A stretch of DNA of 41,850 nt, from positions 1-41,850 of the forward strand of contig CALREZ010000005.1 in assembly GCA_943356445.1 (NCBI GenBank), given 5' to 3'. The notes below the pieces were generated by a model, which was not told where the DNA came from, made no database searches, and saw only the letters and a program-made list of their open reading frames with translations. How positions within the stretch are numbered: the stretch's first letter is position 1; every line of letters begins with the position of its first letter. Positions 34,413 through 35,731 of the stretch are shown piece by piece. A program made the position numbers and the translations under genes. This DNA comes from Candidatus Nomurabacteria bacterium. GTDB taxonomy: Bacteria; Patescibacteriota; Minisyncoccia; Phycocordibacterales; CAIJYI01.

Positions 34413-34703
34413 CTATTCGCACAAATCATCAAAAGAGGCGTAGAGAGAAACGATTTCCTTATCAATTCTTTCTTTTTCCTTTTCTTTTTGTTTAATAAGG
34501 AAAAGAATGACGGTCTTTTTTTCTTCCTCTGTCATTTCAGTATAAATTTTTTCATAAAGAGAAGTCATTGCTTCTATAAACGGTTCCAGCTGACTCTCTG
34601 CTATTTTCTGAGCACTCACTATTGCTCGGCAAGGTTTGGTTGTCCACTGATTATGAATCTGTGCAATGGTTATTCTCCAATTTCGTTCTAATTCTGTACC
34701 CAT
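34413..34703 (-). CDS. Hypothetical helical protein
   Basis: 96 aa ORF. Confidence 0.5.
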   Translation of the reverse strand: MGTELERNWRITIAQIHNQWTTKPCRAIVSAQKIAESQLEPFIEAMTSLYEKIYTEMTEEEKKTVILFLIKQKEKEKERIDKEIVSLYASFDDLCE

Positions 34704-34808: not shown

Positions 34809-35156
34809 TTACATTCCTCTTTTTTGTCTGTGGCAATCGCGGCAAAGCAATTGTCCGAGACGGCTCTGATCGGGTTCAAAAGGAAGTTCATTGATTGAAT
34901 TTCCACAGCCTGAACATGACCAGTTTCCTTGGTGCATGACGCGAGGGCCTCTGTCTCCGCCCCTGCTGTCACGGCCTCCGCGGTTATCTCTGTCTCCGCG
35001 CTTTTGCTTGTGGCAATCGCGGCAGAGCAGCTGTCCCAATCGGTCTTGATCCGGCTGGAACGGGAGTTCGGTAATGGATGCTCCGCAACCGGAACAATTC
35101 CAATTACCTTGGTACATCTGACGGGTAAATCCCCTGTCGTTGTTATCGTACGCCAT
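34809..35156 (-). CDS. Tandem zinc-ribbon protein with RGG-rich linker
   Basis: Two copies of (Q)GNW(N/S)CSGCG.SI.ELPF.PDQ.RLGQLLCRDCH.QKRG joined by DRDNRGGRDSRGGDRGPR. Confidence 0.85.
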   Translation of the reverse strand: MAYDNNDRGFTRQMYQGNWNCSGCGASITELPFQPDQDRLGQLLCRDCHKQKRGDRDNRGGRDSRGGDRGPRVMHQGNWSCSGCGNSINELPFEPDQSRLGQLLCRDCHRQKRGM

Positions 35157-35365: not shown

Positions 35366-35437
35366 CCCTCCATCGTTCAATGGATAGGACATAAGTTTCC
35401 GGAACTTAAAATGTAGGTTCGATTCCTACTGGGGGGA
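35366..35437 (+). tRNA. tRNA-Arg (anticodon CCG), no encoded CCA
   Basis: Acceptor CCCTCCA/TGGGGGG, D-stem GTTC/GGAC, anticodon arm TAAGT-TTCCGGA-ACTTA, T-arm GTAGG-TTCGATT-CCTAC, discriminator A. Confidence 0.95.
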
Positions 35438-35506
35438 CTAAAGCGAAGAAAAAAGTTGAAAGAAAAAAGCAAAAAGAGAACACATAACAAATTCAAACCA
35501 CAAAAG

Positions 35507-35667
35507 CCCCCCAAGCGAGTGAGATGCTCCTCACTCGCGGGTAGGAATTACCCCTCCGGAGTATAAACTACGCCCGATTGAGATATTTTATGATCCGCCG
35601 GCTGGCGGAGAAATAAAATATCCAATTGGTGTACTGCGCCTGTAAGGCGAGATATCCTACTGGGGGA
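35507..35667 (+). ncRNA. Candidate structured tRNA-like RNA/DNA element
   Basis: Outer pairing CCCCCA/TGGGGG and GTAGGA/TCCTAC, 9-bp hairpin GCGAGTGAG/CTCACTCGC, long hairpin 35574-35629; strand and transcription unknown. Confidence 0.45.
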
Positions 35668-35731
35668 CTGGGGAAAAGAAAAATGAAAAGAGCAAAAAGA
35701 AAAAAATAAATAAATTACCATTTTTAATTTT

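What the first reader, a model, noticed from the sequence alone, without database searches (positions are those of the whole stretch)
35366..35667. tRNA-like, multi-hairpin element downstream of tRNA-Arg(CCG) that repeats the tRNA 3' end
The 12-mer TCCTACTGGGGG of the tRNA T-arm/acceptor (35424-35435) recurs exactly at 35655-35666, again followed by (G)ACT. In the second copy it can pair with CCCCCA (35508-35513) plus GTAGGA (35541-35546), so acceptor-stem and T-stem pairings are both kept. A perfect 9-bp hairpin (35515-35538) replaces the D/anticodon arms. The T-loop position is expanded to about 108 nt, containing a hairpin of about 23 bp (CCGATTG.GATATTTTAT..TCCGCC-GGCT-GGCGGA...ATAAAATATC CAATTGG, 35574-35629) and CGCC-TGTAA-GGCG. 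It has no ORF. It could be a novel structured ncRNA, a tRNA copy invaded by palindromic DNA, or a tiny tRNA-targeting mobile element with an att-like repeat.
Basis: partly seen in the sequence, partly recalled or inferred. Interest (0 to 1): 0.8.

Follow-up and report, generated by a model that had tools for sequence, protein, structure and literature searches.

The report
Tiny hairpin mobile element beside tRNA
Next to a tRNA gene of a tiny-genome bacterium lies one copy of an apparently undescribed family of roughly 90-letter, protein-less mobile DNA elements that fold into three hairpins, have spread in many copies through one bacterial order, often land in tRNA genes, and sit between partial copies of the tRNA they hit.

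Summary
In detail: the tRNA-Arg(CCG) 3' end (TCCTACTGGGGG, 35424) recurs at 35655 and nowhere else in the genome, around a strongly folding 190-nt stretch. It is one copy of a dispersed family, not a unique RNA. A covariance model built from relatives scores 35540-35649 at 52.9 bits. It hits 79/148 genomes of the same Patescibacteria order (up to ~20 copies each) and none of the ~360 sampled genomes of other orders or classes of the phylum. The core, GGTGAG-hairpin B-CGCAAGACC-hairpin C-GGTGTACTG-hairpin D, shows strong compensatory change. Two filled/empty pairs and near-identical cores at unrelated sites show that the core alone (~85-100 nt, ends (G)TGAG...TGTAA) moves, with 0-2 bp target duplication. 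Hairpin D is an exact 4-bp match between the element's last bases and its own right flank (129/137 perfect), and differs between otherwise identical copies. 40% of copies lie within 300 nt of a tRNA, 67/74 in tRNA sense; about 30% sit between direct copies of the neighbouring gene. The window copy is the 3' type: core followed by a second tRNA-Arg end starting in the T-loop. Enzyme unknown; Y1 transposases are the best but weakly supported candidate.

The parts
35366..35438 (+). tRNA-Arg(CCG), intact; source of the duplicated end
   Evidence: ARAGORN, Rfam tRNA 59 bits
35424..35439 (+). R: tRNA T-stem/acceptor 3' strand TCCTACTGGGGGGACT, the sequence that recurs
35506..35513 (+). GCCCCCCA: inverted copy (perfect complement) of the acceptor 3' strand
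   Evidence: same arrangement at tRNA-Lys in L006 and tRNA-Thr in L034
35514..35540 (+). hairpin A (AGCGAGTGAGATGCTCCTCACTCGCGG) between the two inverted tRNA pieces; the same hairpin sequence survives in sister genome G001 without the core
35541..35548 (+). GTAGGAAT: inverted copy of T-stem and start of T-loop
35540..35649 (+). core of the mobile element (divergent, tRNA-type copy): covariance model R1 match over all 99 positions, 52.9 bits, E 2.2e-10
   Evidence: own-genome copies in L004, L005, L006, L109, L110
35575..35629 (+). hairpin C (CCGATTGAGATATTTTATGA...GAAATAAAATATCCAATTGG)
35594..35609 (+). palindrome TCCGCCGGCTGGCGGA at the tip of hairpin C, also at the tip in own-genome copies L004 and L005
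35629..35636 (+). GTGTACTG, conserved block between hairpins C and D
35637..35649 (+). hairpin D: element arm CGCC, loop TGTAA (element end), right-flank arm GGCG
35655..35669 (+). second, partial copy of the tRNA 3' end (TCCTACTGGGGGACT), beginning at the T-stem/T-loop

Best explanation
35540-35649 is a copy of a non-autonomous mobile element family of one Patescibacteria order. SHOWN: the unit that moves is the ~85-100-nt core with ends (G)TGAG and TGTAA, no ORF, three conserved hairpins (B, C, D) kept by compensatory change, insertion at G/GG with at most 2 bp duplicated, many copies per genome, enriched at tRNAs in tRNA sense, and frequent direct or inverted partial copies of the neighbouring tRNA or gene start abutting one end of the core, always beside an intact tRNA. 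SHOWN: the last four element bases before TGTAA are complementary to the first four bases of the right flank in nearly every copy, and this 4-mer differs between copies whose bodies are otherwise identical. INFERRED: the element moves as a folded single strand (read on the minus strand: flank CTCC|TTACA-GGAG-CAGTAC-hairpin C), acted on in trans by an enzyme that uses a short internal tetranucleotide paired with the cleavage site, as in IS200/IS605 and REP/TnpA_REP; highly transcribed tRNA genes, whose arms fold and whose non-template strand is exposed, are favoured targets; cells survive because the hit tRNA is locally duplicated, so the element ends up at the junction of an intact and a broken tRNA copy. 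In the window the broken copy is the 3' end of tRNA-Arg, from the T-loop on.
For: Family and distribution: 79/148 genomes of the order; 47 exact-pattern hits whose named records are Kaiser-, Taylor-, Nomura-, Vogel-, Lloyd-, Yonathbacteria and other Parcubacteria/Patescibacteria MAGs; 0 of ~363 genomes outside the order. Structure: 96.5% of cells paired vs 86.6% in shuffles and 43-65% when slid; 12 pairs with double changes vs 3.9; hairpin B, first four pairs 87-98% paired vs 43-61% expected, up to four pair types each; hairpin D exactly 4 bp, no pairing beyond. Mobility of the core alone: L117 vs L118, two clean filled/empty sites; L028/L184, L028/L183: 97.6-100% identical bodies, unrelated flanks. 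Location-specific 4-mer: CTCC/GGAG vs AACC/GGTT in 100% identical bodies; 129/137 perfect. tRNA association: 74/186 within 300 nt, 67 sense; 30% vs 10% within 150 nt for random places in the same loci; upstream-type copies start at about tRNA nucleotide 1; downstream-type copies start at the T-loop; direct flank repeats 31% vs 1% in mismatched flanks, inverted 12% vs 0%. Insertion history at this locus: G002 has the tRNA without the element, G001 only hairpin A and a remnant. Guide/cleavage-site logic of IS608 and REP: PMC5934647, PMC8266576.
Against: No enzyme is tied to the family: Y1_Tnp is in only 58 of 79 carrier genomes and absent from 13 of 50 rich ones; cores lie near Y1 genes no more than chance. 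The Y1 genes examined carry palindromes of their own. Canonical IS608 keeps one fixed guide, so a 4-mer that changes from site to site is not explained by it. The window copy is divergent in the hairpin-B part, so its exact left end is not defined. No sequence-identical empty site exists for the window copy itself.
Confidence: 0.62

Rival explanations
1. Structured non-coding RNA with a cellular role, processed from the tRNA transcript; copies spread by duplication but are kept for function.
For: Strong compensatory change, tRNA-sense orientation, placement in tRNA transcription units; excess of G-U over A-C in hairpin B (25 vs 5).
Against: Copy number up to ~20 varying between sister genomes, nested insertions of one copy in another (L118), scattered absence in half of the genomes of the order; G-U pairs almost absent in hairpins C and D and no consistent strand asymmetry; 60% of copies not at tRNAs; sister genome G002 lacks it at this tRNA.
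Confidence: 0.12
2. RNA-mediated retro-element: the core RNA is joined to (mature) tRNA and copied back by reverse transcriptase, giving core-tRNA chimeras.
For: Upstream-type copies start at or within 1-3 nt of the mature tRNA 5' end in most cases while leaders are unrelated; three downstream-type copies (L025, L107, L222) carry CCA where the intact gene lacks it; sense bias.
Against: CCA in 3 of about 25 is weak, and the CCA copy could be the original gene end; chimeras sit beside the parental tRNA, not elsewhere; several copies extend into trailer or leader; reverse transcriptase (PF00078) is missing in carriers G000, G002, G013, G014, G017.
Confidence: 0.13
3. Palindromic DNA shaped mainly by replication template-switching: hairpins seed inverted and tandem copies of neighbouring tRNA ends and force the two arms of hairpin D to match.
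For: Inverted copies extending terminator palindromes into the tRNA end (L006, L034, L103); arms of hairpin D match at each site although bodies are identical; wobble pairs rare.
Against: Pairing in hairpin D stops exactly after 4 bp, whereas palindrome correction should run on variably; it does not explain precise insertion of a conserved core with fixed ends in dozens of genera.
Confidence: 0.1
4. Remnant of a tyrosine-integrase island at the tRNA (att repeat on both sides).
For: tRNA 3' end repeated from the T-loop on either side, as in integrase islands.
Against: Only 230 nt lie between the repeats, no integrase, the same core occurs without any tRNA repeat, and the unit that moves ends before the repeat.
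Confidence: 0.02

Closest known systems
REP / BIME / REPIN elements mobilised by TnpA_REP (RAYT)
   Same: Short, ORF-less, hairpin-forming, many copies per genome, tetranucleotide next to a hairpin, C|T at an end (minus strand), presumed mobilisation in trans (PMC8266576).
   Different: ~90 nt with three distinct hairpins in fixed order, GTAC instead of GTAG, strong preference for tRNA genes in sense, matched 4-mer to the flank; no linked RAYT gene found; several rich genomes have no Y1_Tnp.
IS200/IS605 single-strand transposons (IS608) and their non-autonomous derivatives
   Same: Insertion with little or no target duplication; a tetranucleotide in the element pairs with the flanking target (PMC5934647).
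   Different: In IS608 guide and target are fixed for the element; here the paired 4-mer differs between otherwise identical copies. No transposase inside.
Rickettsia palindromic elements
   Same: ~100-150 nt palindromic, structured repeats of one lineage of reduced genomes (own knowledge; mentioned in PMC5799277).
   Different: No sequence or structural relation tested; RPEs are known for in-frame insertion in protein genes, here tRNA genes dominate.
Mitochondrial GC clusters / double-hairpin elements
   Same: Tiny hairpin mobile DNA with ~2-bp direct repeats (AG in yeast GC42, PMC4478555) and no known enzyme.
   Different: 42 nt, organellar, no tRNA fragments at the ends.
IS110 bridge-RNA elements
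   Same: Loop-encoded short guides that match the insertion site; some target structured sites (own knowledge).
   Different: IS110 transposase (PF02371) is in only 10 of 148 genomes of the order and not in the home genome; the element is shorter than a bridge RNA.

Membership tests
Non-autonomous mobile element (generic) | Discrete unit with fixed ends found at unrelated sites, with empty sites | tested here: met
   L117/L118 filled/empty pairs; L028/L184 identical bodies, unrelated flanks
Non-autonomous mobile element (generic) | No coding capacity of its own | tested here: met
   75-116 nt units; no ORF-bearing version among the loci
REP/REPtron | GTAG tetranucleotide directly 5' of the palindrome | tested here: not met
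   Conserved block is GTAC next to hairpin C
REP/REPtron | Carrier genomes encode a RAYT/Y1 transposase | tested here: inconclusive
   58/79 carriers vs 31/69 non-carriers, odds ratio 3.4, not corrected for kinship; 13 rich genomes without
REP/REPtron | Repeats clustered around the transposase gene | tested here: not met
   1 strong and 1 weak core within ~2.5 kb of 20 Y1 genes; none at 30 others
IS200/IS605-type single-strand transposon | No target duplication and element tetranucleotide paired with the flanking cleavage site | tested here: met
   (0-2 bp ambiguity at G runs)
IS200/IS605-type single-strand transposon | Guide constant in the family and inherited with the element | tested here: not met
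IS200/IS605-type single-strand transposon | Cleavage and joining by a HUH Y1 enzyme on single-stranded DNA | not testable with these tools
   needs biochemistry
Integrase island at tRNA | Integrase gene and att repeats as the ends of the moving unit | tested here: not met
   unit ends at TGTAA, no integrase
tRNA intron | Removal restores a functional single-copy tRNA | tested here: not met
   joined flanks never give a tRNA (weak test because broken copies are truncated); an intact tRNA stands beside the broken copy in every tRNA case examined
Known Rfam family | Score above a gathering cut-off | tested here: not met

The most novel reading that the evidence does not exclude
A mobile element whose terminal 4-base 'guide' is written anew from the target at each insertion (or matched to it by the insertion machinery), so that the element is never committed to one target sequence, and which copies fragments of mature tRNAs next to their genes as it inserts; a mode of transposition not described for any known family.
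Probability: 0.15. Interest if true: 0.9.

Novelty: new variant of a known kind. Interest (0 to 1): 0.64.

Why it matters
It adds an abundant, apparently undescribed structured mobile element to the very small genomes of Patescibacteria, where few non-coding repeats have been characterised. It affects tRNA genes directly (broken and duplicated tRNA copies, false tRNA annotations), gives insertion markers for comparing strains, and offers a natural system in which the pairing between an element and its target can be read from hundreds of copies. If the site-specific 4-mer is set at insertion, it would be a new way of targeting.

Tried and rejected
Rfam at gathering and at permissive thresholds: only the tRNA; the sR10 and RNase P hits are far below cut-off. 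Integrase-island reading: moving unit excludes the repeat. tRNA intron: no single-copy interrupted tRNA. Reverse transcriptase as universal driver: absent from rich carriers. IS110: too rare. GIY-YIG: in 146/148 genomes, uninformative. A linked gene next to copies: 597 neighbouring ORFs give only housekeeping and scattered families. ORF inside a longer version of the element: none found. Viral origin: exact core pattern absent from IMG/VR. Empty site of the L110 copy in G002: gene end not alignable. RNA versus DNA strand from wobble counts: inconsistent between hairpins. Papers: no description of such an element in Patescibacteria in the open-access library.

Full report
Check. The window is contig 5 of a 1.05-Mb, complete genome (G000). 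tRNA-Arg(CCG) lies at 35366-35438. The repeated 12-mer occurs nowhere else in the genome. The stretch 35495-35685 folds far better than shuffles on both strands, z = -6.9 and -6.0. Rfam knows only the tRNA.

A family. A DNA search of the home genome with the stretch found further copies of its central part, one of them (L006) downstream of tRNA-Lys with the same anatomy: tRNA end, inverted copy split by a hairpin, core, direct copy of the tRNA end. Searching 98 relatives with that copy hit 42 genomes. An alignment of 24 cores (A1) gave a covariance model (R1). R1 matches 79 of 148 genomes of the order, up to about 20 copies in one genome. In a draw of 380 genomes over the phylum, all nine genomes with matches are in the same order. 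Named records with an exact core pattern are Kaiser-, Taylor-, Nomura-, Vogel-, Lloyd- and Yonathbacteria and other Parcubacteria/Patescibacteria MAGs; IMG/VR has none. The window copy matches R1 over its full length with 52.9 bits. It belongs to a divergent type in which the hairpin-B part is replaced by the inverted tRNA end; the same type lies beside other tRNAs in L119 and L111.

Structure. Consensus: (G)GTGAG-hairpin B-CGCAAGACC-hairpin C-GGTGTAC(T/A)G-hairpin D. On the MAFFT alignment, 96.5% of cells of hairpins C and D pair, against 86.6% in shuffles and 43-65% when partners are slid; 12 of 19 pairs have changes on both sides. Hairpin B, anchored by its conserved borders, pairs in 87-98% of copies at its first four positions against 43-61% expected. 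Hairpin D pairs at exactly four positions (98-100%) around TGTAA and not beyond.

What moves. In genome G104 two otherwise identical repeats (L117, L118) differ by two core-only insertions: GGGGTCGG|GAAACGGGAG became GGGGTCGG[GTGAG...TGTAA]GAAACGGGAG, and CCGTGG|GTTTCTAAAG became CCGTGG[GTGAG...TGTAAG]GTTTCTAAAG. In G014, L028 and L184 have identical 82-nt bodies at unrelated sites that share only the G's at the borders. So the mobile unit is the core itself; target duplication is 0-2 bp within G runs.

The matched 4-mer. The element's last four bases before TGTAA are the perfect complement of the first four flank bases in 129 of 137 copies. In L028 and L184 the only difference is this 4-mer, CTCC against AACC, each matching its own flank (GGAG, GGTT). 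Most other close pairs at unrelated sites also differ there; few of these comparisons are independent. In both empty sites of G104 the flank 4-mer (GAAA, GGTT) was already present. In copies inside tRNA pieces, however, the flank 4-mer often departs from the tRNA sequence at its last two positions, so both arms can change together after insertion. Whether the element arm is rewritten on insertion, selected from variants, or corrected later is open.

tRNA link. Of 186 distinct copies 74 lie within 300 nt of a tRNA and 67 of these read in tRNA sense (p = 2e-13 if independent, which they are not fully). Two arrangements recur. Upstream type: a copy of the tRNA 5' part, starting at about nucleotide 1 and cut at a variable internal point (22-60), abuts the core, then a short spacer, then the intact tRNA (L059, L127, L174, L171, L104). 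Downstream type: intact tRNA, spacer, core, then a copy of the tRNA from the T-loop to its end or a little beyond; the window is of this type. Protein genes are hit in the same way at their 5' ends (tmk-like in L011, uvrD-like in L021; gene names from the translated starts only). Direct repeats across the element occur in 31% of copies against 1% for mismatched flanks, inverted ones in 12% against 0%. Inverted copies of tRNA ends that extend terminator palindromes (L006, L034, L103) show that template switching at hairpins has also been at work.

Age at this locus. G002 of the same genus has tRNA-Arg and the downstream gene without the element; G001 keeps only hairpin A, identical, and a piece like hairpin C. 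The insertion is thus likely to predate the G000/G001 split and to have been lost by imprecise deletion in G001.

Enzyme. Y1 transposases are in 58 of 79 carriers and 31 of 69 non-carriers, and missing from 13 of 50 rich carriers; cores do not cluster at Y1 genes. Reverse transcriptase and IS110 transposase are not general; GIY-YIG is everywhere; no gene family is linked to copies. The inference of a folded single strand with guide-like pairing rests on the 4-mer, on the small target duplication and on the parallel with IS608 and REP (PMC5934647, PMC8266576). I hold the mobile-element statement as nearly certain, the single-strand mechanism as a working model.

Verdict. Real, not a unique RNA, and not an att-flanked island: a member of an apparently undescribed family of three-hairpin mobile elements with a taste for tRNA genes. 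'Apparently undescribed' rests on no Rfam match and no paper in the open library; subscription papers were not searchable.

Noticed in passing
L112 (G083:C4:1-450): A tRNA-Leu copy with the core in its T-loop, and a complete tRNA-Leu lying inside the loop of hairpin C, followed by two further half cores each with a tRNA 3' end: a small tRNA/element array.
   Followed up: partly
L104 (G042:C7:118900-119300): Two tandem broken tRNA-Ala copies, each with a core between anticodon arm and T arm, upstream of the intact gene.
   Followed up: partly
L101, L103 (G041): In this genome the core sits inside a larger conserved frame: left TCGAA-AGACGGAGCAGCGGGTCCC...GAGGCGG, right GCACTTAGT...ACTTAGTGACTCGTGACC, again between inverted and direct tRNA ends; possibly a second, nested element family.
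   Followed up: no
L230, L232, L233, L235 (Y1 genes of G014, G017, G010): Y1 transposase genes carry short palindromes of their own on both sides (e.g. TTGGACATCGGATGTCCAA), unlike the core.
   Followed up: no
window 35440-35500 and 35670-35715; L007, L008: A-rich stretches (AAGAAAAAAGTTGAAAGAAAAAAGCAAAAAG), in several places paired with a T-rich inverse, recur many times in the home genome, probably as terminators.
   Followed up: no
L025, L107, L222: Downstream tRNA copies carry CCA after the discriminator base although the intact neighbouring gene does not encode it.
   Followed up: partly
window 34413-34703 and 34809-35156 (minus strand): Small ORFs upstream of the tRNA; the second has two near-identical Cys-rich (CSGCG...CRDCH) repeats, suggesting a zinc-binding protein that is kept in G001 and G002.
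   Followed up: no
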